From assembly GCA_947174785.1 (NCBI GenBank), contig CAMWKG010000002.1, forward strand, positions 62,001 to 126,000: a DNA stretch of 64,000 nucleotides, read 5' to 3'. Position numbers and translations under genes: made by a program. Within the stretch, counting starts at the first letter, position 1, and every line of letters starts with the position of its first letter. Origin of the DNA: an uncultured Mollicutes bacterium. Its GTDB lineage: Bacteria > Bacillota_I > Bacilli_A > Acholeplasmatales > Anaeroplasmataceae. Of the stretch, positions 2,103 through 15,101 are shown one piece after another. Under the pieces are notes generated by a model. It made no database searches, was not told the origin of the DNA, and was given only the letters and a program-made list of their open reading frames with translations.

Positions 2103-3173
2103 CTATAAAGGAAAATTTCTATTATACTTTGGCATAATGCAGCTTTCTAAATCTGTTTCCTTTATTTCACTTGCATCCATATAGCGGATATTCTTTGTAT
2201 ATATTTTTTTATCAGCATGTATAGCCATATTATCTAATGATAAACCACGTCTTGAATCTTTTAGGGTTATAGGCATAATGCATACTGGACATTTTGGATT
2301 GTGCTTTCTTGCTTCTTTTAATCTTTTAAATTGAAAAAAATTATCTTTAGGGTACATTCTTTGAAATCTTGTAATAGCCATAATAAAAACTTCTTCACTT
2401 TCATCAATGAATGATGCAGACTCTACCACTTTAGAAATGTTGGGAGAAATCAAACAAGTATAACCATTAGATGGCAAGCCGTCTATTTCACCTTCAATGA
2501 AGCAAAAATCAATGTAGTTATCAATTGTTTCATATTTTTGCCATTCTTCAAATATTTTTAAAGCAGATTGAGAATCTCCTTCGTATAGTAAACCTACCGC
2601 ACTTTCTGAATTTGGTGAAAATAGAAATACTACCCCTCTCCATTTTGCTCTATCCCACAATTCAATATTGATTGGAGAAGCCAAAAACATTGTTTTTCTT
2701 ATCTTCTTTGGAAGCGGTTCGAGAACAGGTGGTTTAATGGTGTTAGAAATACCCTTCAAACGATTTATAAGTTTTTGAAATTGGCTTTCGATATTATAAT
2801 TTGTATAAGGTTGTAGCGCTTTTAAAATAAACTGCTTATCATTTTCATCAAAGACTACTGGAATGAACTTGTCATTATGTCCTTTAAGATTATATAAACT
2901 CTGATATATAGAATTGACTTCCCAAGAAACACCTTTCCCTTCTTTAATTTGTTGAAATTTTTGAAAATAAGTTTTGGTTGAAACAACTAAGACATAATCT
3001 GAATCTTCTATTTGCTTCTCCATCCATATTGGCCATCCCATATCTGGATTTTCTTCATATTGATCTATATTTGCATCAATACCATTCTTTCTTAACTTAT
3101 TAGAAAATATAAGTATCTTTTTTGAAAATTCTTCATTTTCCCATGCATAAGAAATAAACACTTTTGGAATCAT
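2103..3173 (-). CDS. SEFIR (TIR-like) domain protein
   Basis: A 356-residue protein. Residues 1-145 form a SEFIR domain: VFISYAWENEEF at the start, then NGIDANIDQYE, a WPIWMEKQIEDSDYVLVV strand-helix-strand, and GVSWEVNSIY, which could supply the acidic residue used by TIR enzymes. Residues 160-356 are an unassigned C-terminal region containing a CPVC pair near residue 295. SEFIR domains are TIR relatives found in eukaryotic IL-17 signalling and in bacterial defence genes, where they are proposed NADase effectors. The gene lies directly downstream of the serine recombinase, past that gene's terminator, and next to the RES gene. It starts at the ATG at 3173 with GGGAGAAG upstream. The substrate and trigger are unknown. 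Confidence 0.75.
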   Translation of the reverse strand: MIPKVFISYAWENEEFSKKILIFSNKLRKNGIDANIDQYEENPDMGWPIWMEKQIEDSDYVLVVSTKTYFQKFQQIKEGKGVSWEVNSIYQSLYNLKGHNDKFIPVVFDENDKQFILKALQPYTNYNIESQFQKLINRLKGISNTIKPPVLEPLPKKIRKTMFLASPINIELWDRAKWRGVVFLFSPNSESAVGLLYEGDSQSALKIFEEWQKYETIDNYIDFCFIEGEIDGLPSNGYTCLISPNISKVVESASFIDESEEVFIMAITRFQRMYPKDNFFQFKRLKEARKHNPKCPVCIMPITLKDSRRGLSLDNMAIHADKKIYTKNIRYMDASEIKETDLESCIMPKYNRNFPL

Positions 3174-3232: not shown

Positions 3233-3269
3233 AAAAAAAAGACCAAACTATTATTCCATAATTTGATCT
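3233..3269 (-). terminator. Terminator overlapping the recombinase stop codon
   Basis: AGATCAAA pairs with TTTGGTCT (one T-G pair) on the minus strand and is followed by eight T. The stem begins inside the last codons of the recombinase. The same structure is preserved in the decayed copy at 141-175. Confidence 0.6.
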
Positions 3270-5236
3270 TGTGTTATTAAATTAAAATGTTGAAAGGCAT
3301 CTATAATAGCTTTTTTCTTTTCTTCTGTCGGATGTGCACTTCTGTTTATAGTTTCTTCTGTGTGTCTTACACATTGCATATCAATTCCATAGTACCTTTT
3401 CATTTCAGCTATATAGGTTGTATGAATCTTTAAACCATACTTCTCTAGGATGTAAGCTTTTATATCCTTATAGGTTGCTGTCTTACGACTATACTGAGTT
3501 GGTCTTTCCTTTTTCACAATAGGCTTATCTTTACCTCTTGGAATATAAGTATAACTATGCTGTTGAATAAATACTGTTTCATCGTTTATATTGAAGGAGA
3601 TATTAAAGCATTGCACATTTTCTTTGTCGAATACTACATCTGCAAAACCTTCCTTATTTTTAGACACTGGAAACTTAAAATTAATTTCCTTTAATCTACC
3701 ATCTTCATGAAATAGAATTGAATCTATAATTAAAGACATCATTCTACGCTTCTCATCACCACTCATTTGACTGAATAGCTTATCAAAATTCTTTAGAGCA
3801 TTTTGGATTTTTTCTATGGTGATATCTTTATTTTTCACACCTAGAATCTTCTGTTTCAAATCCTCTATTCTTTCCTCTATTTCCTCAATCATGTCATACA
3901 TACCATATAATCTCTTGTTCATATCCGTTAGAGCCCTATCACGATATTTTACATCTAATGGTAATGAATCAATAGATATTTCTAAATCTGATTTGTTTTG
4001 AAATACTTGAGATAATTTCTTTTGATAGTTGCTCAATTCTTTTTCCATTTTAGTAGTATCAACTTGAGTGCCTATCTTTTCTTTTAGTTTATTTGCAAAT
4101 TCATCATTATAGACTAAATCCTTAATCAAATTGATAATATAAGGCTCTATTTCATAGTCCTTAATTCTGCCATGATAATTGCAGATATGTCCTTTATCTG
4201 TTCTTGTATAGACACAACCATATTCATAATAACGGGTAGAAACTCCATTGACATAGTGACTACCTTGATATCTTATATGCATAGGTCCACCACAGGAAGG
4301 ACATCTAAGAATGCTTGATAATAGATGAACATGATCAAAAGAATTATGGGGTTGTTTCTTCTTTCCTGCTTGGCGTTTAGCATAGGCTAAATTCCAAAGT
4401 TCTTCAGAGATGATTGCCTCGTGCTGTCCATCTCCTAATATAAAATCCTTACTCTCAAGAATTTGATATTGATTCTTTTTTCCTTTTACCTTTGTCTTTT
4501 TTCTTCTACCAAAAGCCACTTTACCTACATAGACAGGATTATCTAATATTCTTCTAACAGTATTTTGAGACCAATAATCAAGAGTATTATTTTGTCTTAG
4601 TTTTTTCTTAATCCCTTGATAGTTTAATCGAGTAGCTATATTATAAGTACCTATATCTTCATAGATATATAATTCAAAAATCATTTTAATGATATCTGCT
4701 TCATCTTCTGCAATCAATAATTTTCCATTTTCTAACTTGTAACCATAAGGAGCAAATCCACCATTCCAACCACCTTGTCTAGCCTTTTCTTTACGACCAT
4801 TCATAGTTTGTTCAATGATGTTCTCTCTTTCAATTTCAGATACAGCTGATAATACAGAGATGAGTAGCTTACCGCTGGTTTGTGAAGAATCTATTCCCTC
4901 TTCAGTTGCAATCAAATTAATATCATAGGACTGGATATATTCTATTGAGTTTAAGATATCGGCTGCATTTCTTCCAAAACGAGAGAGCTTATAAACCAGG
5001 ATATAATCAATGGATAAACCATCGCCTATATCCTTTAACATTTTTGTGAAAGCAGGTCTGCCTTCAATGCTTTTACCAGATTTTCCTGCATCTTCATATA
5101 TGTCTTTTACAATCATTCCCTCACGTTCAGCATAACGTTTTAGGATATTACGCTGTCCATCAAGAGAAAATCCATCAACTTGCATTTCTGTTGACACTCG
5201 AATATAGATGACACATTTCTTTCCTTCTCTGTTCAC
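3251..5236 (-). CDS. Large serine recombinase (integrase of the island)
   Basis: A 661-residue site-specific recombinase. The resolvase catalytic domain spans about 8-155, with the nucleophile Ser15 in YIRVST and an SRFGR motif. A recombinase domain follows (about 160-290). Next is a zinc ribbon with CPSC near residue 313 and two further cysteines in YEYGCV and HICN, then a coiled coil (about 390-475). The last ~80 residues form a separate module (TYKDIKAYILEKYGLKI onward) that I associate with mobile-element proteins in Clostridia. Such enzymes integrate and excise elements at short attachment sites. The start is GTG at 5236 with AGGAGG about 9 bases upstream. It follows the 39-residue ORF and the ImmA-like gene in one transcript. 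No attachment-site pair was located. Confidence 0.93.
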   Translation of the reverse strand: MNREGKKCVIYIRVSTEMQVDGFSLDGQRNILKRYAEREGMIVKDIYEDAGKSGKSIEGRPAFTKMLKDIGDGLSIDYILVYKLSRFGRNAADILNSIEYIQSYDINLIATEEGIDSSQTSGKLLISVLSAVSEIERENIIEQTMNGRKEKARQGGWNGGFAPYGYKLENGKLLIAEDEADIIKMIFELYIYEDIGTYNIATRLNYQGIKKKLRQNNTLDYWSQNTVRRILDNPVYVGKVAFGRRKKTKVKGKKNQYQILESKDFILGDGQHEAIISEELWNLAYAKRQAGKKKQPHNSFDHVHLLSSILRCPSCGGPMHIRYQGSHYVNGVSTRYYEYGCVYTRTDKGHICNYHGRIKDYEIEPYIINLIKDLVYNDEFANKLKEKIGTQVDTTKMEKELSNYQKKLSQVFQNKSDLEISIDSLPLDVKYRDRALTDMNKRLYGMYDMIEEIEERIEDLKQKILGVKNKDITIEKIQNALKNFDKLFSQMSGDEKRRMMSLIIDSILFHEDGRLKEINFKFPVSKNKEGFADVVFDKENVQCFNISFNINDETVFIQQHSYTYIPRGKDKPIVKKERPTQYSRKTATYKDIKAYILEKYGLKIHTTYIAEMKRYYGIDMQCVRHTEETINRSAHPTEEKKKAIIDAFQHFNLITQDQIME

Positions 5237-6828: not shown

Positions 6829-7488
6829 ATGTATTATTATGTAGAAGACAAAAATTTTTTAGATAAGGCTAGAAGTTGTTGTTCAAGATTACTAAAAGAA
6901 TTAGAGGAGAATTTGCGAGAAAAAGGGATAAACTCACAATTCTTTTTAGTAGGAAGTGGTGGTCGAAATATGATTACTCAAAACGAAAATGGACCGATCG
7001 ATTTTGACTATAATTTGAATATCATTTCCTGTCCAAGTTGGAATGATGCGAAGGGGATAAAAGAACTTGTCAGAAAAACTTTTAATCAGGTTATGAAAAA
7101 GAATAGTCTAAACGATGTTGATGATTCCACTTCTTCTTTAACATCAAAACCAATGCATTTTAGAGATGAGCCTAACACTCAATTTTCTATTGATTTATGT
7201 ATCGTAACAAAAGATACAGGCAATGAATGGCAAAGACTTATTCACGAAAAAACAGGTTATATAAATAATGATAAGTATTTTTGGAATACAGCTCCTAATT
7301 CAAAAAAATATTCTGACAAAGTAAAAGAGATTAAATTTGTTGGGAGATGGAATCTTGTTAGAGATGAATACTTGGATATTAAGAATCATTACTTAAGAAG
7401 AAATGATTACAACCATCCTTCTTTTGTTTGCTATATCGAAGCTGTAAATAATGTTTATAATCATTTGAGACAAAAAAGAATAATTTAA
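6829..7488 (+). CDS. Putative Pol-beta-type nucleotidyltransferase
   Basis: A 219-residue protein. VGSGGRN at about 41-47, followed by DFDYNL with Asp58 and Asp60 and then SIDLCIV with Asp122, fits the G-S ... DxD ... D pattern of the polymerase-beta nucleotidyltransferase superfamily. That superfamily includes CD-NTases, MNT antitoxins and tRNA-type transferases. The C-terminal ~80 residues are unassigned. It is the only plus-strand gene in this part of the island besides the repressor, has its own promoter and a GAGGGTGAT ribosome site, and shows no partner effector beside it. Whether it makes a signal nucleotide or modifies a target cannot be told from sequence. Confidence 0.55.
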   Translation: MYYYVEDKNFLDKARSCCSRLLKELEENLREKGINSQFFLVGSGGRNMITQNENGPIDFDYNLNIISCPSWNDAKGIKELVRKTFNQVMKKNSLNDVDDSTSSLTSKPMHFRDEPNTQFSIDLCIVTKDTGNEWQRLIHEKTGYINNDKYFWNTAPNSKKYSDKVKEIKFVGRWNLVRDEYLDIKNHYLRRNDYNHPSFVCYIEAVNNVYNHLRQKRII

Positions 7489-7639: not shown

Positions 7640-7663
7640 AGCCCCTGCATTAATGCAAGGGCT
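7640..7663 (-). terminator. Terminator of the Dnd-like/Dam operon
   Basis: AGCCCTTGCAT and ATGCAGGGGCT (minus strand) form an 11-bp stem with one T-G pair and a very short loop, followed by TTTT. It lies about 110 bases downstream of the last gene of the operon. Confidence 0.5.
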
Positions 7664-7773
7664 AAAATAGTTGCTTTATTTGTCCTCTATGCTCTAATAA
7701 ACTATTCAGCATTTGCGTTTGATGATATCATTTTAAAGTTTATTTTTTCTTAGCATTATATAACGAGACATAT

Positions 7774-8211
7774 TTAATATGAAACTCTATATTTTTTTAT
7801 TTCTATACACCAATTCTTCAAAGTACTAGCTCGTCTTTCTACAACAGCATCACTATATTCTGGATAATATTTTTTTATAATAAAACTAGCATATTTTTTT
7901 ATATCCTCCTCGAAAAATAGCATATGAGCAAATATTTTTCCTATTACTTCGTCTGAAATAATCCTCTCATATATTTTTTTCTTTATTAATGAAGGTTCAT
8001 CAAATAAAGATTTACCATATTCTGTCAATTGCAAATCCTCTGTGATCAAATCCAAGTAAATACAAGCACTTAAATAATATTGCGCTTGTCGAGGATCAAA
8101 TCCACAAAAATTAGCTATATCTTGTATTGTACAACCAACTTTATTTCCAAAATATATAAAAACTTTAATTACTGTCTCAAGATTATTTGCTTGAGGTAAA
8201 ATTTTTTTCAT
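7774..8211 (-). CDS. Winged-helix protein of the Dnd-like/Dam operon
   Basis: A 145-residue protein without a catalytic motif. Residues 10-70 look like a winged helix (GCTIQDIANFCGFDPRQAQYYLSACIYLDLI, then LTEYGKSLF). The C-terminus RRASTLKNWCIEI resembles the tail of the winged-helix segments I know from type II restriction proteins and AAA-associated families (DUF7226-like); this assignment is from memory. It overlaps the Dam-type gene by 4 bases (ATGA), so the two are translationally coupled. It is the last gene of the operon. It may confer DNA recognition or regulate the methyltransferase; no nuclease core is visible. Confidence 0.6.
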   Translation of the reverse strand: MKKILPQANNLETVIKVFIYFGNKVGCTIQDIANFCGFDPRQAQYYLSACIYLDLITEDLQLTEYGKSLFDEPSLIKKKIYERIISDEVIGKIFAHMLFFEEDIKKYASFIIKKYYPEYSDAVVERRASTLKNWCIEIKKYRVSY

Positions 8212-9056
8212 CGCTGTAATCTCCCTATTATAAATAATTCCGTTACTTCTCTTCTTGATTCACTCTTGGCTCCAATGGTTCTTCTTACTTTTAATTCGCT
8301 ATGCAATTCATAAAAATTATATGGATCATTTCCGTATAATTCTCTTATAAATCTTGTATTAGAATTACTTATGCCAACAGTAACACCCCTTTGAACAAGC
8401 AAATCACATAATTCTTTCAATTCTCTTTGATTATTCTGATTAAAACCACTTGCTGTATATCCCACAAATCCATTTTGACCCTCTTCTACATCATAAGGAG
8501 GATCAAAATACACAACATCTCCAGCTTGAGCCCTATTTGCCACTACGCGGTAATCATTCACTTCAAAAGAAACATTATAATCATTAAAATACTTACTAAC
8601 ATCTCTTATTTCATCGGCAGCCAAAATTTTAGGATTAACATATCTGCCAAAAGGGACATTATTTTGACCATTTTGATTGACACGCCAAATGCCATTAAAA
8701 CAAGTGTGATTTAAATACATAAATCTCGCTGCCCTTTCTATTTCAGTTAATCTAGAAAATTCAATCGGCTGTCGATCAATATTTCTAATTTGCAAATAAT
8801 CATGACTATTATTTTTATCAATATATTTCTGTAGTTCGACTATTAATTCTTCAGGATGATTTTTTACTATATTATACAGATTTATTAATTCTACATTAAT
8901 ATCACTACACTTTGCATTGCGCGGTTCCATATAAAGAAGTATCGCGCCACCACCAATAAAAGGCTCATAATAGTTATTAAAATTATTTCCTAGAAGTTTA
9001 GATATTTGTTGAGCAAATCTTCTTTTTCCACCTGCCCATTTAACTATAGGTTGCAT
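8208..9056 (-). CDS. dam: Dam-type (D12 class) DNA adenine N6-methyltransferase
   Basis: An alpha-class N6-adenine methyltransferase of 282 residues, the usual Dam/DpnM length. VKWAGGKRR near the N-terminus and EPFIGGGA (about 31-38) form the S-adenosylmethionine site, and YFDPPYD is catalytic motif IV. Close relatives methylate adenine in GATC, but target specificity cannot be read directly. The ATG at 9056 has AAGGAG 8 bases upstream; a TTG two codons earlier is too close to that site. It lies between the Dnd-associated protein 4-like gene and the winged-helix gene. In that place it would be the self-marking partner of the SMC ATPase and PLD-helicase. Confidence 0.9.
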   Translation of the reverse strand: MQPIVKWAGGKRRFAQQISKLLGNNFNNYYEPFIGGGAILLYMEPRNAKCSDINVELINLYNIVKNHPEELIVELQKYIDKNNSHDYLQIRNIDRQPIEFSRLTEIERAARFMYLNHTCFNGIWRVNQNGQNNVPFGRYVNPKILAADEIRDVSKYFNDYNVSFEVNDYRVVANRAQAGDVVYFDPPYDVEEGQNGFVGYTASGFNQNNQRELKELCDLLVQRGVTVGISNSNTRFIRELYGNDPYNFYELHSELKVRRTIGAKSESRREVTELFIIGRLQR

Positions 9057-9068
9057 ACACAAGACTCC

Positions 9069-9500
9069 TTATAATTTAAATCCATTCATCAATAAGTTCA
9101 TATAAAGTTTATTAAGAATGGTAATCCTATCATTTGATTTTTTATCTACAAAGTCAATTCCTAATTTATTTACCAATAAATCAAAACCACCATTTGCATA
9201 GTTTTCTAAAATTTCGTACTTCTCATTTTTCTTTAAAACAATTTGTTCTTTTTTATGAGCATAAGCAATAAAATCAATCATATCATAATCACGTTGAGTA
9301 AAGAATTGCATTAATACACCATCAGATGCAGGAGATTCAATTGGGATAAATAGCTTATTATTATAGCCAATGACAGCAGAAAGCATAATTATTTGACTAT
9401 ATGATTGAAATATTTTTAACTCCTGTATTAAGTATTGCATTTGTTCTTGTTGTGTTGCATTTCTCTTAATACGATACTTGGGGTCTGTGTAAATTGACAT
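9069..9500 (-). CDS. Dnd-associated protein 4-like small protein
   Basis: A 143-residue protein. The pattern of a conserved core (IIMLSAVIGYNNKLFIPIE), a middle acidic helix and the closing motif ILENYANGGFDLL resembles the small Dnd-system-associated protein 4 family, whose members end in a similar FEEYANGG segment. That identification is from memory of the family and should be checked with its profile. It starts 1 base after the DndD-like stop with a strong AAAGGAGGG site, and precedes the methyltransferase by 12 bases. No catalytic residues are evident; it is probably a structural subunit of the restriction complex. Confidence 0.65.
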   Translation of the reverse strand: MSIYTDPKYRIKRNATQQEQMQYLIQELKIFQSYSQIIMLSAVIGYNNKLFIPIESPASDGVLMQFFTQRDYDMIDFIAYAHKKEQIVLKKNEKYEILENYANGGFDLLVNKLGIDFVDKKSNDRITILNKLYMNLLMNGFKL

Positions 9501-9501
9501 C

Positions 9502-11601
9502 TTATTGTCCCTCCTTTACAATTGATAGGCTTTCATTTTCAACTTTAACCAAATGATTTTCACACCCTACATAAGGAATGATTGAATCTTTCACAGAAGC
9601 TAGTCCTTCTTCAGAAGACATTAAAATCACTTGTCCAGTAAAATTATGTAAATTTGCTGAGGACCTCATCAAATTATCATCTGTAAGTTCAGTAAAAGGA
9701 GAATCAATTAGAAATGGATAATTTTTTGTAATCTCTGTAGAGTCTACATCTCGAATCTCATTTGAATAATCTAAAATAGCCTTTGCAAAAGTTAGAGTAT
9801 TTATTTTGCTTTGACCAGTAGAATTAGATTCTAGTACTTTGAGTATAATGTATTCCTTTATCTCACTATCCGTCTTATCAATCATTTCTAAAGATTTAAT
9901 TGTACCATCATTAGTAAAATTCTTTAACATTTCTTCGTAATTTGACTGATAATAAGAAACAAGACGATATTTTTGAACAGGATCATATTGAACAATGTAT
10001 AATCTTCTACCATATGCGTGATCTTCCGACATCTGTGAATAAGCTTCGTTAATTTTACTATTAATATTTTCTAATGAAATTTTTTTGTTAAATTCATCAA
10101 TTTCATTTAAAGATTTCAAACATTTTTGAATATAATTATATTTTGCATTGAAAAATCTAACCTCTGCATCATTTCCTTTGCAGCTTTCTTTGTCTTTTTG
10201 TAATTGCTCTATTCTATTTTTAGTCCACCTAATATTATTCTCTAATTCAATTATATTTTTATTGAGAGCATCTTCCTCAATAACTAATTCTTTATTTCTT
10301 CTTTCCAAATCTTTAATTATTTCAGGAGCATCTTCAGAAATTTGGCTTGAGACATATGCCAATTCTTTCTTTATCTGTTCTATTTCTTTTTGTGTTTTTT
10401 CTATAGAATTAAAAGATGCTTTTAATACGTCTTTAACTTCATCTGAATGCATTTCATTTTGTCGCAACATTTCTCTAATTGTGCTACTAATATTATCTGG
10501 TGGAAGTGTTTCTAATAAAGCTTCCATCTTTTTTCTTGATTCATCATCTATATTATGACCACAAATACATGTTGGTCTAGCCAATATGCTTTTTACTGCT
10601 TCAACAGTAAGACCAAATGGAATATCATTATATTCTAATGAATTTAAAATATCCTCAAATAAACATTTAGAAATTAATAAATAACCCTCATAAAGATTTT
10701 TGTAAAATTCATCTGTTACGTTATCTAAATCCTTATTTTTATCGTCCAAACTTTTTTTATATTCAATTCTTCTCTCTTCATAAACTTTTGAACTTTCGTG
10801 TCTTTTTAATTCACTGGATATTTCTAGCAATTCAGATTTAACAATTTCCAAACGTTCTTTTTTAGCTTTCAACGTGGTCTCATCAACGTTTAGTTCACTG
10901 CCAAAACGTTCTAATTTATATACAACAGTTTCCAAATTACTATTTTTACTTTTCTTTGCAACTCGCCTTAGTTCTTTACTTACCTTATTATTTAAATCTA
11001 AAAACTCTGTTCTACACAATTCAAAAAGTTCTTCATTAGTGATGTGCTTTATAACACCTTCAACTGCTGTTTTTGATACTTCATCTACAGAGCTTAGTTG
11101 TTTCATGCGCTCACCATCAAAAATTATTCCATACAAAATGCTTTTGGGTATAATATCTGTCAATCTTTTCTCTACAATTTCCTTATCTCTTTCAGGAAGA
11201 CTTCTTTCCCCATGCTCATTAATAGTACTCAACTCTACAGTTTGTTCAGATTCAATTCCGTTTTTAGTTTTATAAAAAACTTCAATTCGCTTCATAATAT
11301 AAATCAAATCATTATATTCAAACTGAAGTTCCACAGAACAATCAAACTTTTGAGTTTGTTGTGGATCTTCAAGTTTTCTATATAATGCCGAATTTAACGC
11401 ATACGGAGTATCCTCCTTACCTTTTAAATCTTTAAAATTAAAATTATATAATACCCACCAAAAAGAAAAGAGCATTTCTGTTTTTCCCCCACCATTAGGA
11501 GCAACAATTAATGCAATATTCTTTTTTTCATCAGTTTTGAAGGACAACTCTGCATCTATAAAACAACGATAATTTTTATACTTAATTCTTAAAAATTTCA
11601 T
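9502..11601 (-). CDS. DndD-like SMC/Rad50-type ATPase
   Basis: A 699-residue ATPase with Rad50/SMC architecture. Walker A APNGGGKT is at 34-41, and long coiled coils span about 210-300 and 360-520. They flank a hook-like centre with CIC (345 and 347) rather than the usual CxxC. A C-terminal Walker B FLIDSPF and a following ILMSSEEG stretch match the DndD pattern. DndD normally supplies ATPase activity for phosphorothioate modification, with DndC. No DndC (PAPS-reductase-like), DndB or DndE gene is present here. The start overlaps the preceding small gene by 170 bases less than its length (20 bases in total), with GAGGTAG upstream. It could load onto or scan DNA for the PLD-helicase. Confidence 0.82.
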   Translation of the reverse strand: MKFLRIKYKNYRCFIDAELSFKTDEKKNIALIVAPNGGGKTEMLFSFWWVLYNFNFKDLKGKEDTPYALNSALYRKLEDPQQTQKFDCSVELQFEYNDLIYIMKRIEVFYKTKNGIESEQTVELSTINEHGERSLPERDKEIVEKRLTDIIPKSILYGIIFDGERMKQLSSVDEVSKTAVEGVIKHITNEELFELCRTEFLDLNNKVSKELRRVAKKSKNSNLETVVYKLERFGSELNVDETTLKAKKERLEIVKSELLEISSELKRHESSKVYEERRIEYKKSLDDKNKDLDNVTDEFYKNLYEGYLLISKCLFEDILNSLEYNDIPFGLTVEAVKSILARPTCICGHNIDDESRKKMEALLETLPPDNISSTIREMLRQNEMHSDEVKDVLKASFNSIEKTQKEIEQIKKELAYVSSQISEDAPEIIKDLERRNKELVIEEDALNKNIIELENNIRWTKNRIEQLQKDKESCKGNDAEVRFFNAKYNYIQKCLKSLNEIDEFNKKISLENINSKINEAYSQMSEDHAYGRRLYIVQYDPVQKYRLVSYYQSNYEEMLKNFTNDGTIKSLEMIDKTDSEIKEYIILKVLESNSTGQSKINTLTFAKAILDYSNEIRDVDSTEITKNYPFLIDSPFTELTDDNLMRSSANLHNFTGQVILMSSEEGLASVKDSIIPYVGCENHLVKVENESLSIVKEGQ

Positions 11602-11770
11602 TCTTTACTACCTCGTCTACTTGTTCATTTATATATGATTGAAGATTATCCTTTTTCCCTTGCTGACAAAGTTTTGCATAATTAATTATGTTTTTAAAAG
11701 ACTCCGTTTCTTGTTCATCAAATTGTTCATTTTTTAGCACTTCTTCTATAGGATTAGTTTTTGTATTCAT
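11582..11770 (-). CDS. Small acidic protein coupled to helicase and ATPase
   Basis: A 62-residue, highly charged, helical protein (NTKTNPIEEVLKNEQFDEQE onward) with no recognised domain. The ATG at 11770 has GGGAGG 9 bases upstream and lies within the last codons of the helicase, while its own end overlaps the start of the DndD-like gene by 20 bases. Overlap on both sides shows it belongs to the operon. It could bridge helicase and ATPase or be a small regulatory subunit. Confidence 0.7.
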   Translation of the reverse strand: MNTKTNPIEEVLKNEQFDEQETESFKNIINYAKLCQQGKKDNLQSYINEQVDEVVKNEIFKN

Positions 11771-13817
11771 TATCAAATTCCTCCCTTACAACACCATACT
11801 CATCAATATATTCATTTATTTTTCCTTGTATTTCATCTTTGTTATCTGCAAGTCTTGCATATTCTAAAACTCTACCAAACTCTGTAATAATTAATGCATG
11901 CGGAACATCATAAATGCCAAGAGGTGGCAAAACAACCATATCAAAAATGTTAGCAATTGTTTTACCAGTTTCTCTACATTTTCTTAGCACCCTGCCACGT
12001 CTTTGAACCGTCTGTCTTAATGAAGAATCACTTGCAAGAATATAGATTTTATCTAATTTGGGAACATCAACACCCTCATCAAAGCATTTTATAGCTACAA
12101 GCGTATCATAATAATTATTTTCAAATTCATATAAAACTTGTTTTCTGTCTTTCGTTTTACTAGTAAATTGTGAAACATCATATTTACCGTTCAAATAAAG
12201 AATTTCAGTTACTTTATCAACAATAGAACTATCTTCGTCTTTTCCTTGACCACAATAAACCACAGAATTTCTAAAGTCATATTCATCCATCATCTTTTCT
12301 AATTCAGTAAGTTTTATATTAGCTTGTTTTAAAATTAAGCATCTTTCATTTGCCAATCGGCTAATTGCTTCATCATATGTATGGTCATTCTCATCTTTTC
12401 TTGATGCAAGATATTTACCTAAAACTTTTGATTTAGCAACATATCTTTCATAATCATCAAAACTTAATCTGACATATATCGGATGATAATTATAATGAGA
12501 TAAAAATCCATTTTCGATAGCTTTTTCAATTCCATAAAAATAAGGTTCAATAGTTCCTTCTGTAAAATAATTTATAATAGCTTTTTCTTCTCTAGGATTA
12601 AACCTTTCTATTGTTGCACTTAATCCCAATTTCATCTTTGCAGATTTAGGCAATTTCTTGATTTGATTGTAATTCAAATTGTGTGCTTCATCGAATATTA
12701 CAAATAAATTATCTATATTTTCGCATTTATCGTATACTTTAGAAAAAAAGGTATCATATATTGAAACGCAAATAATTGTTTCTTCACTAGAAAACCAATG
12801 GATTATTGCTTTGGTAATATTGTCATCTGTTTGTTTAGTATCAGACTCTCCTCCAAAAAATAGAATTTCTTCAAATCCCTCATCACACAAAGCCCTATAC
12901 CATTGATTCTGAAGATCAATTTGAGGTACACAAATTATTACAAATATTTTTTTATTATATTCTTGTACTTTTTTTATAGTTTTAACTGAAGTGAATGTCT
13001 TTCCTGTTCCTGTTGCCATTTCATAAAAATGCCTATATCCATTTTTGATAAATTGCTCAATAGCTATTTCTTGGAATGGATACAACGTCTTAGATTTGAT
13101 CTCTTTCTTATCCTGATATCTATGGATTGCCTGTTCTAATGATTCACTTACTTTATATGCTGTAAATATTTTTTCTTCTAATGCTTTAGGAAAATCATAA
13201 ACAATAATACGTTTATTATCAATTTTATTTTCCCATAAATTATCAAAATATTGCTTTTCATTTTGGATACTTATTCTTGCTTTTTCGTTATCCCAAGAAG
13301 TAGACACCATAAAACTTTCAAAATTTTTCTTATTGGCACTAATTGTCGAATTGTTTGAACCATTAAAATATACATTCTCTCCCTCTGCATCTGTAAAGAT
13401 ACCAAATTTTTCATGATATACTCCATCAGGCATAAATGCTATTTTTATTTTGAGACGACCAGCTGCGATCAAGTTACAAATGATGTCCATTTTTGTACTT
13501 TCAGCCTCATTTAATTCTTCATATGTAAAGGAATTTATAAGATCAGCTGTAGTTCTTTTGTCATCTATTAATAATCCACGAGCAATTAGTTCAATGTCAT
13601 CATTAGACAGTTCTGGATTACAAATCAGCCTGATATTCCCACCATTTCTAATAAACTTCAACAATCCTTCCATCGACAAAACTAATGACTTTAAAGAAAA
13701 GTAACCTGAACCTCTATCAAAACTAATACTTTCTGCATAAGAAGGATTTAAAAACTCGTTATCAAAATCATTGAAAGTACTTCTATAGATATCTAAATAC
13801 TGATTTCTTTTTAACAT
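11754..13817 (-). CDS. PLD nuclease fused to SF2 helicase (restriction enzyme)
   Basis: A 687-residue fusion. Residues 1-200 form a phospholipase-D-type nuclease domain with HEK at 135-137 and NGSNNS at 152-157. From about 245 an SF2 helicase follows: Walker A MATGTGKT (267-274), DEAH (376-379), motif III LSAT and motif VI QTVQRRGRVLRK. Helicases of this make-up serve as nucleases of Dnd-linked restriction and of ATP-dependent restriction enzymes such as NgoAVII. It is the first gene of the six-gene operon and starts at the ATG at 13817. One HKD-type motif per chain suggests it acts as a dimer, as many PLD nucleases do. Confidence 0.85.
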   Translation of the reverse strand: MLKRNQYLDIYRSTFNDFDNEFLNPSYAESISFDRGSGYFSLKSLVLSMEGLLKFIRNGGNIRLICNPELSNDDIELIARGLLIDDKRTTADLINSFTYEELNEAESTKMDIICNLIAAGRLKIKIAFMPDGVYHEKFGIFTDAEGENVYFNGSNNSTISANKKNFESFMVSTSWDNEKARISIQNEKQYFDNLWENKIDNKRIIVYDFPKALEEKIFTAYKVSESLEQAIHRYQDKKEIKSKTLYPFQEIAIEQFIKNGYRHFYEMATGTGKTFTSVKTIKKVQEYNKKIFVIICVPQIDLQNQWYRALCDEGFEEILFFGGESDTKQTDDNITKAIIHWFSSEETIICVSIYDTFFSKVYDKCENIDNLFVIFDEAHNLNYNQIKKLPKSAKMKLGLSATIERFNPREEKAIINYFTEGTIEPYFYGIEKAIENGFLSHYNYHPIYVRLSFDDYERYVAKSKVLGKYLASRKDENDHTYDEAISRLANERCLILKQANIKLTELEKMMDEYDFRNSVVYCGQGKDEDSSIVDKVTEILYLNGKYDVSQFTSKTKDRKQVLYEFENNYYDTLVAIKCFDEGVDVPKLDKIYILASDSSLRQTVQRRGRVLRKCRETGKTIANIFDMVVLPPLGIYDVPHALIITEFGRVLEYARLADNKDEIQGKINEYIDEYGVVREEFDNEYKN

Positions 13818-13867
13818 TTATAATCACTTCCTCATACATATTTGCGAAAAGAAATAACCTATTTTAC

Positions 13868-13876
13868 ATTATATCA
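13868..13876 (-). promoter_or_regulatory. Extended -10 promoter of the Dnd-like/Dam operon
   Basis: TGATATAAT on the minus strand lies about 50 bases upstream of the helicase start. A TTGATA sequence exists but is too far away to be an ideal -35 box. Confidence 0.5.
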
Positions 13877-13994
13877 CAAATTATGTCATATTTTTATCAA
13901 TATTTCAAAAAAACTAATATATTAAAAGATAATATACTAAATTTTCTATACAAAACTGCTTAGAACATCGCATATCATAGTTTACATTACATTT

Positions 13995-14048: not shown

Positions 14049-15068
14049 TTAATCAAATTTAGCTTTAGCCTTTGCAATTGATTCTTTTAGCTTTTGTTCT
14101 AGCAATTTCATATCTGGCAGCTTGGTATAGTATTCAGCAACTCTTATATTGCTATCTTCTAATTGCAATAATTCCACATGTTCTTCATTTTTTTCTGAAC
14201 AAAGTATTAAGCCAATTGGAGAATTTTCTCCTTCAACTTTTTCATACTTCTCTAGCCATCTTAGGTAGAGTTCCATTTGTCCTTTGAATCCAGCTTCAAA
14301 TTTTCCTAGTTTCAAATCAATAGCAACTAGGCATTTTAGTCTTCTATGATAAAACAGCAAATCTATGTAATAATCTTCATTGTCAATGGTAATCCTTTTT
14401 TGACGTGCCATAAAGGCAAAATCAGAACCAAACTCTACAATGAAATCCTCTAATTCTCTTAATATAGCAGATTCTAAATCTTTTTCACTATAAGTATCTT
14501 TCAAGCCAAGATTTTTTAAAATATATGGATCTCTAAAAACTAAATCTTGAGTTAGCTTATCTTCTTTTTCTAATAAAGCTAACTCCTGTTTGATTGTTTC
14601 ATCTGGCTTCTTGCTAATGGCAGTTCTCTCATAAAGCATTGAATTCATTCTTTCTTTTAGAGTTCTTGAACTCCAATGACCAAGTTTACACATTTCAATA
14701 TAAAAATCTCTTTTCAAAGAATCTTCGATATACATAAGCATTCTAATATTTGTCCACGTTAATTCTCTACGCACTGCGTATAGTTTTTCTTCAGTAAATG
14801 TTTTAGCAAAATGAATGCATTGCCAAAGTTGTTGTGAACTCCAACCACTACCATATTGCATTGTTAAATTTTTAGATAAATCTTCTATGATGTTTTTACC
14901 ATATTCAGCATTAGAATCCATTAAAATATCTTGATTGATTCTTTTACCGATATTCCAATATAAAGTGGTTATTCTATCATTAACAACTTTTGAAAAATCA
15001 GCTCTAGCATTTTTTATTAATTCATCAATATCTCTAAACAAATCCTTTTCAATTTTAATGATTTCCAT
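14049..15068 (-). CDS. YhcG-like PD-(D/E)XK nuclease-domain protein (DUF1016)
   Basis: A 339-residue protein of the YhcG/DUF1016 family. The N-terminal half (LYWNIGKRI, YGKNIIEDLSKNL, GWSSQQLWQC) is the helical DUF1016 N-terminal domain. The C-terminal half holds a PD-(D/E)XK fold with YYIDLLFYHRRLKCLVAIDLK, giving the Asp and the DxK catalytic pair. Family members are common in defence islands and beside type I restriction genes; their biochemical role is not settled. The ATG at 15068 has GGAGG 5 bases upstream. A 19-bp palindrome lies just upstream of the ribosome site and recurs inside the gene. It has its own terminator and is the last accessory gene before the core rlmD. Confidence 0.85.
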   Translation of the reverse strand: MEIIKIEKDLFRDIDELIKNARADFSKVVNDRITTLYWNIGKRINQDILMDSNAEYGKNIIEDLSKNLTMQYGSGWSSQQLWQCIHFAKTFTEEKLYAVRRELTWTNIRMLMYIEDSLKRDFYIEMCKLGHWSSRTLKERMNSMLYERTAISKKPDETIKQELALLEKEDKLTQDLVFRDPYILKNLGLKDTYSEKDLESAILRELEDFIVEFGSDFAFMARQKRITIDNEDYYIDLLFYHRRLKCLVAIDLKLGKFEAGFKGQMELYLRWLEKYEKVEGENSPIGLILCSEKNEEHVELLQLEDSNIRVAEYYTKLPDMKLLEQKLKESIAKAKAKFD

Positions 15069-15082
15069 ACTTTCCTCCAATT

Positions 15083-15101
15083 CTATACGCACTGCGTATA
15101 G
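15083..15101. promoter_or_regulatory. 19-bp palindrome upstream of the YhcG-like gene
   Basis: CTATACGCACTGCGTATAG has perfect 9-bp arms around one base. It lies between the presumed promoter and the ribosome site of the YhcG-like gene. A second copy with one change (CTCTACGCACTGCGTATAG) occurs inside the gene at 14765-14783. It looks like an operator, but no regulator gene is adjacent. Confidence 0.55.

What the first reader, a model, noticed from the sequence alone, without database searches (positions are those of the whole stretch)
7640..13876. Dnd-like restriction module joined to a Dam-type methyltransferase
One compact operon holds a PLD-SF2 helicase, a small acidic protein, a DndD-like SMC ATPase, a Dnd-associated protein 4-like protein, a D12-class adenine methyltransferase and a winged-helix protein. 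The first, third and fourth resemble parts of phosphorothioation-linked restriction, yet the sulfur-transfer genes (dndA, dndC, dndE) are absent. The simplest reading is a restriction system that senses N6-methyladenine status instead of phosphorothioate. The genes overlap or nearly touch, share one promoter and one terminator, and sit in a defence island. I do not recall a named system with this exact set.
Basis: partly seen in the sequence, partly recalled or inferred. Interest (0 to 1): 0.85.

Follow-up and report, generated by a model that had tools for sequence, protein, structure and literature searches.

The report
PbeABCD defence operon paired with Dam
This is a bacterial anti-phage operon whose DNA-attacking half is a known system (PbeABCD) normally paired with sulfur tagging of DNA, but here it is paired with an adenine methylase and a winged-helix protein, which suggests it tells self from foreign DNA by methylation instead of sulfur.

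Summary
The operon is real: six intact, overlapping or nearly touching genes at 13817→7774 (− strand). The first four are a named system: PbeA (HKD nuclease–SF2 helicase), PbeB (small acidic protein), PbeC (CxC-hook ABC ATPase, DndD sister clade) and PbeD (DndE fold). PbeABCD is known as a phosphorothioate-linked defence module, and solitary pbeAC near methylase genes was already published. No sulfur-transfer gene was found in this genome; its only PAPS-reductase-like hit is TilS. What appears undescribed is the partner: a D12/Dam methylase, nearest in PDB to the GATC enzyme DpnM, plus a DUF7226 winged helix. The pairing recurs. Of 78 PbeA+PbeC loci, 5 carry Dam; 4 of those have DUF7226, against 0 of the other 73. 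A single origin of the four Dam+DUF7226 loci is rejected. DUF7226 looks Dam-dedicated: in a 392-genome sample every genome that has it has a Dam-type gene beside or fused to it, alternately with a type II nuclease, the PDC-M33 candidate system, or Pbe. Best reading (inferred): Dam marks self at GATC-like sites and PbeABCD attacks unmarked DNA. Verdict: new variant of a known kind. Methylation site, reader role and phage protection are untested.

The parts
11754..13817 (-). pbeA: N-terminal HKD (PLD-like) nuclease fused to SF2 (ResIII-type) helicase, 687 aa
   Evidence: PADLOC PbeA 1.9e-167, TIGR04095 3.6e-92, PLDc_2 + ResIII; H135, K137, D143, G153-S154, N156 and Walker/DEAH residues invariant among 13 homologues
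11582..11773 (-). pbeB: small acidic protein, 63 aa, overlaps both neighbours
   Evidence: position and size; comparable 45-72 aa ORFs in the same place in L041, L042, L044, L045, L070; no specific family match
9502..11601 (-). pbeC: DndD-sister ABC ATPase with CxC zinc hook (C345, C347), 699 aa
   Evidence: PADLOC PbeC 2.7e-56; Walker A, CxC and D633 conserved in the alignment
9069..9500 (-). pbeD: DndE-like double ribbon-helix-helix protein, 143 aa
   Evidence: TIGR04062 4e-11, below cut-off; AF2 pLDDT 88.7; best PDB folds are DndE 5wtu, 7x4e, 4lrv, target-normalised TM 0.6-0.7, E not significant
8208..9056 (-). D12-class (Dam family) N6-adenine DNA methyltransferase; probable start ATG 9056 (282 aa); the ORF tool starts at TTG 9062
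   Evidence: TIGR00571 above cut-off; best solved relative DpnM 2dpm 6.7e-60; DPPY and the RVNxxGxNxPxG hairpin conserved
7774..8211 (-). DUF7226 winged-helix protein, 145 aa; its ATG overlaps the Dam stop (ATGA)
   Evidence: PF23871 6.6e-15; AF2 pLDDT 95.7; weak MarR/MntR-like wHTH matches
7640..7663 (-). hairpin downstream of the operon, possible terminator (short T-tract)
   Evidence: -17.7 kcal/mol, z -3.26; not called by the terminator scan
13880..13908 (-). promoter-like site TTGAAA-17-CATAAT with extended TG
   Evidence: not above chance expectation

Best explanation
A PbeABCD (CxC-ABC-ATPase) restriction module that uses N6-adenine methylation instead of phosphorothioation as its self mark. 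The Dam-type enzyme methylates host DNA at a short site, most likely GATC. The PbeC-PbeD pair (DndD/DndE-like scanner), helped by the DUF7226 winged helix as site or methylation reader, surveys DNA. When unmethylated target sites on incoming DNA are met, the PbeA HKD nuclease-helicase is licensed to cut or to block replication, with PbeB as regulator. Shown: gene content, folds, intact active-site motifs, absence of detected sulfur-transfer genes, recurrence of the pairing. Inferred: methylation site, DUF7226 as reader, attack on unmethylated DNA, phage protection.
For: Four genes match PbeABCD by profile, motif, position or fold. No DndC in the own genome; the only PAPS-like hit is TilS. L041 carries the same six-gene set in the same order; L042 has a Dam::DUF7226 fusion upstream of pbeABCD plus a second DUF7226 at the operon end; L073 has DUF7226 directly before pbeA beside a Dam + DUF7226-REase pair. 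Of 78 PbeA+PbeC loci: 40 with sulfur-transfer genes, 5 with an N4-type methylase, 5 with Dam (none of which also has a DndC hit), 28 with none seen; DUF7226 in 4 of 5 Dam loci and 0 of 73 others, Fisher 3.5e-6. Holding window+L041+L042+L073 as one clade is rejected, p 5e-5. DUF7226 is otherwise a Dam partner in type II R-M and PDC-M33 loci. Published precedent: PbeABCD is modification-dependent and spares phosphorothioated virus; its haloarchaeal PT motif is GpsATC, the same tetranucleotide as Dam (PMC6459918). Winged-helix domains can read Gm6ATC in DpnI and fusion enzymes (PMC11037411).
Against: GATC specificity rests on similarity to DpnM and E. coli Dam only. GATC is depleted in this genome (0.49 of expectation) but equally in same-genus genomes without a D12 methylase, so depletion is not diagnostic. 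Only five Dam-linked loci were found, two of them (window, L070) are long branches in the tree, and L070 lacks DUF7226. DUF7226 shows no DpnI match among the listed folds and could be a regulator. No expression, methylome or phage data. PbeABCD was reported to act without visible DNA cleavage (PMC6459918).
Confidence: 0.62

Rival explanations
1. The Dam methylase and DUF7226 are a remnant of a type II R-M system (Dam + DUF6996-DUF6997-DUF7226 nuclease) that lost its nuclease and lies beside a solitary PbeABCD; the two halves do not cooperate.
For: DUF7226 is often the C-terminus of such a nuclease next to Dam; Xiong et al. raise the possibility that solitary pbe modules are inactive.
Against: Same strand and overlapping genes; the same six-gene order in L041; DUF7226 directly within the Pbe operon of L073 and L042, separate from the Dam unit; intact catalytic motifs; single origin of the four Dam+DUF7226 loci rejected.
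Confidence: 0.17
2. Abortive-infection system: PbeABCD cleaves host DNA when a phage blocks or alters Dam methylation or the PbeB/DUF7226 regulator; the methylase acts as a guard rather than as a phage-exclusion mark.
For: Rakesh et al. propose suicide via the HKD nuclease with the small protein as negative regulator (PMC10853773).
Against: Haloarchaeal PbeABCD blocked viral DNA replication at an early stage and let PT-modified virus through (PMC6459918), which fits discrimination of incoming DNA.
Confidence: 0.12
3. DUF7226 is a transcriptional control protein of the operon, not a DNA-target reader; the rest works as in the best explanation (this rival concerns one step and overlaps the best explanation).
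For: Winged-helix fold with weak MarR/MntR-like matches; small size.
Against: It is fused to the C-terminus of methylases and of nucleases, and the helix-3 motif RQxxYY is conserved across R-M, M33 and Pbe loci, unlike what a promoter-specific repressor would need.
Confidence: 0.25

Closest known systems
DndCDEA-PbeABCD (Xiong et al. 2019, PMC6459918)
   Same: pbeA-B-C-D content and order; dependence on a host DNA modification is expected
   Different: no sulfur-transfer (dndC) gene detected in this genome; a D12 N6-adenine methylase and DUF7226 follow pbeD instead
CxC-ABC-ATPase/DndE systems with cytosine methylases (Rakesh, Aravind, Krishnan 2024, PMC10853773)
   Same: HKD-SF2, small protein, CxC ATPase, DndE cognate and a base methylase in place of PT genes
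   Different: the methylases described there are C5 and N4 cytosine enzymes, often with MTaX1; here it is Dam-type with DUF7226
Type II R-M with D12 methylase and DUF6996-DUF6997-DUF7226 nuclease (PADLOC REase_II PDLC03513)
   Same: Dam-type methylase next to a DUF7226-containing protein
   Different: the nuclease domains are missing; DUF7226 stands alone and pbeABCD takes the restriction place
Dam::DUF7226 with PDC-M33ABC candidate defence system
   Same: Dam plus DUF7226 coupled to a multi-gene effector
   Different: unrelated effector genes

Membership tests
PbeABCD / CxC-ABC-ATPase system | PbeA: HKD nuclease fused to SF2 helicase | tested here: met
   PADLOC PbeA 1.9e-167; HKD and helicase residues invariant
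PbeABCD / CxC-ABC-ATPase system | PbeC: ABC ATPase with CxC zinc hook | tested here: met
   PADLOC PbeC 2.7e-56; C345 and C347 conserved
PbeABCD / CxC-ABC-ATPase system | PbeD: DndE cognate with two ribbon-helix-helix units | tested here: met
   AF2 model, DndE structures the best PDB folds though E-values not significant; TIGR04062 hit below its cut-off
PbeABCD / CxC-ABC-ATPase system | PbeB: small disordered protein between pbeA and pbeC | tested here: met
   63 aa ORF overlapping both neighbours; judged by size and position only
Phosphorothioate-based DndCDEA-PbeABCD | linked sulfur-transfer genes (dndC, PAPS-reductase family) | tested here: not met
   no DndC in the own genome, only TilS for PAPS_reduct; assembly 96.3% complete
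Canonical Dnd modification system | DndD equivalog | tested here: not met
   TIGR03185 48 bits against a cut-off of 246
Type II restriction-modification | cognate stand-alone restriction endonuclease next to the methylase | tested here: not met
   DUF7226 present without the DUF6996/DUF6997 nuclease part
Dam family methyltransferase | score above TIGR00571 cut-off, DPPY motif | tested here: met
   249 bits against 115; DPPY in the alignment
Dam family methyltransferase | methylates GATC | not testable with these tools
   closest solved relative DpnM; K8, R127 and P137 conserved at positions that contact GATC in E. coli Dam (the contacts are from my own knowledge)

The most novel reading that the evidence does not exclude
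PbeABCD modules recognise one short site, GATC in some lineages, and accept chemically unrelated self marks on it: a sulfur in the backbone (GpsATC) in archaea, an N6-methyl group on the base here. DUF7226 would be an exchangeable reader that couples Dam methylation to unrelated effectors (type II nuclease, PDC-M33, Pbe).
Probability: 0.33. Interest if true: 0.75.

Novelty: new variant of a known kind. Interest (0 to 1): 0.5.

Why it matters
It gives a concrete, testable case for a 2019 proposal that PbeABCD can run on methylation instead of phosphorothioation, and it names a partner domain, DUF7226, for which no paper was found and which travels with Dam between unrelated defence effectors. 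If true, how one restriction engine reads different chemical marks becomes directly testable by swapping modification modules.

Tried and rejected
A GATC-depletion test: depleted, but genus-wide and also without a D12 methylase, so uninformative. Viral contig search with the methylase: no relative. Plasmid search with PbeC: only distant matches. Phage search with the DUF7226 nuclease: none. Literature for DUF7226 and DUF6997: nothing held. The 2020 CxC ATPase paper is not held, so whether adenine methylases are listed there is unknown, and the supplementary list of Xiong et al. could not be read. A clade of window + L073 alone is not rejected (p 0.14), so the number of independent origins is at least two, not surely three or more. 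Labels in the first tree missed divergent DndC homologues and marked many sulfur-linked loci as 'none'; the tally uses a looser threshold.
Full report
OBSERVATION. The six genes exist as described on the minus strand, 13817 to 7774, all intact. From the sequence, pbeA/pbeB and pbeB/pbeC overlap by about 20 nt, pbeC and pbeD nearly touch, pbeD and the methylase lie a few bases apart, and the methylase stop overlaps the start of the last gene (ATGA). The methylase start is more likely ATG 9056, 8 nt after AAGGAG, than the TTG listed. A stable hairpin follows the last gene, although the terminator scan does not call it, and promoter matches are at chance level. 'One promoter and one terminator' is therefore plausible but not shown.

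WHAT THE GENES ARE. Profiles put the first and third genes in PbeA (1.9e-167) and PbeC (2.7e-56). TIGR04095, the 'DNA phosphorothioation system restriction enzyme' domain, matches the helicase. The PbeA alignment keeps H135, K137, D143, G153-S154 and N156 of an HKD nuclease and the helicase motifs. PbeC carries the CxC zinc hook (C345, C347) that separates this clade from DndD; the DndD model itself scores far below its cut-off. The 143-residue protein hits Dnd-associated protein 4 below its cut-off. Its predicted structure (pLDDT 88.7) has DndE structures 5wtu, 7x4e and 4lrv as best folds, with target-normalised TM about 0.6-0.7 but non-significant E-values; this agrees with PMC10853773, which calls PbeD the DndE cognate. 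The methylase is a Dam-family D12 enzyme whose nearest solved relative is DpnM. The last protein is DUF7226, a confident winged-helix model with only weak matches to MarR/MntR-type repressors.

NO SULFUR CHEMISTRY FOUND. The own genome (96.3% complete) has no DndC match. Its single PAPS-reductase-family hit reads as tRNA-lysidine synthase. The window methylase is the only strong D12 match in the genome; two weak ones exist.

RECURRENCE. From 395 genomes of the class about 20 PbeA loci were taken, and 80 loci came from the genome collection, most of them PbeA. Locus L041 has the same six genes in the same order. L042 has a Dam::DUF7226 fusion upstream of pbeABCD and a second DUF7226 after pbeD. 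L073 (Oceanobacillus) has DUF7226 directly before pbeA, beside a Dam gene and a DUF6996-DUF6997-DUF7226 nuclease. L070 (Saccharibacteria) has a Dam gene without DUF7226. Among 78 loci with both PbeA and PbeC, 40 have sulfur-transfer homologues, 5 an N4-type methylase, 5 Dam, and 28 none detected (some are truncated contigs). DUF7226 is in 4 of 5 Dam loci and in none of the other 73 (Fisher 3.5e-6). This p-value is optimistic: L041 and L042 are related, and the window, L041 and L042 were the seeds of the Dam and DUF7226 profiles, so only L073 came in afterwards. In the PbeC tree the N4-linked loci form one group (support 94) and Dam-linked loci are scattered. Forcing the window, L041, L042 and L073 together is rejected (p 5e-5); the window with L073 alone is not (p 0.14). 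So Dam linkage arose at least twice. The window row is a long branch and its place is unsure.

DUF7226 IS A DAM PARTNER. In 392 genomes of the phylum sample, 18 had DUF7226. In each of these genomes a D12 methylase was detected beside or fused to a DUF7226 copy, though several mycoplasma-type loci are broken into pieces by recoded or degenerate frames. Three kinds of partner appear: a type II nuclease that ends in DUF7226; Dam::DUF7226 fusions next to PDC-M33ABC; and PbeABCD. On plasmids the same nuclease family lies by DNA adenine methylases in several records (neighbouring coordinates). Where Pbe loci hold two DUF7226 copies or more (L042, L073), one belongs to the methylase or nuclease unit and one to the Pbe operon. 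Helix 3 carries a near-invariant RQxxYY motif across all three contexts. This fits a shared target reader and fits less well a promoter-specific repressor, but it is not proof.

MECHANISM. Published: haloarchaeal PbeABCD stops viral replication in a modification-dependent way and spares PT-modified virus; its PT motif is GpsATC (PMC6459918). Winged-helix domains in DpnI and several fusion nucleases sense Gm6ATC (PMC11037411). Inference: Dam marks self at GATC-like sites, PbeCD with DUF7226 scans, and PbeA acts on unmarked DNA. The methylase family keeps K8, R127 and P137 at positions that, from my own knowledge of E. coli Dam, contact GATC. Genome GATC depletion was tested and is not diagnostic.

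NOVELTY. PbeABCD is known, and solitary pbeAC near methylase genes was reported and interpreted as possible methylation-based modules (PMC6459918). PMC10853773 describes cytosine methylases with these systems. In the text I could read, neither describes a Dam-type adenine methylase with DUF7226; the 2020 source paper and the supplements were not available. I therefore rate it a new variant of a known kind.

Noticed in passing
L150, L151, L152, L153 (and L158 nearby): Dam::DUF7226 fusion genes lie next to a three-gene set; in L150 all three match PDC-M33A/B/C, suggesting the Dam-DUF7226 unit also serves that uncharacterised candidate defence system.
   Followed up: partly
L073:5629-8774: Oceanobacillus locus combining a Dam + DUF6996-DUF6997-DUF7226 type II R-M pair with a separate DUF7226 gene directly before pbeABCD; may be an intermediate of module exchange.
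   Followed up: partly
window 6829-7488 (+): 219 aa protein with a nucleotidyltransferase-like GSGGRN...DFDxN motif (by eye), no Pfam or PADLOC match, downstream of and convergent to the operon; a relative (2.9e-10) sits near the Pbe locus in L036:844-1533.
   Followed up: partly
window 2103-3173 (-): bSEFIR-type (TIR-like) defence protein, PADLOC 1e-46.
   Followed up: no
window 3251-5236 (-): large serine recombinase (Resolvase/Recombinase/Zn ribbon) in the island, a possible integrase of a mobile element.
   Followed up: no
window 14049-15092 (-): YhcG-family PD-(D/E)XK nuclease, PADLOC PDC-S02 3.5e-121; a further DUF1016/YhcG-like ORF (by eye) lies beside tilS in L164:2090-3064.
   Followed up: no
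L031, L036, L051 and relatives: Many Bacillota PbeABCD loci sit by a divergent PAPS-reductase-like gene, a ~280 aa DUF4007-like protein (by eye), a ~1150 aa ATPase-like protein and, in L036 and L051, a cysteine desulfurase-like gene: apparently an alternative sulfur-modification set.
   Followed up: no
L041:4572-4877, L042:5217-5749: small PC4-like genes directly after DUF7226 in two of the Dam-linked Pbe operons.
   Followed up: no
window and 400 kb sample of G000 (L168-L187): GATC, CATG and GGCC all at about half of Markov expectation, similar in same-genus genomes with and without a D12 methylase.
   Followed up: yes
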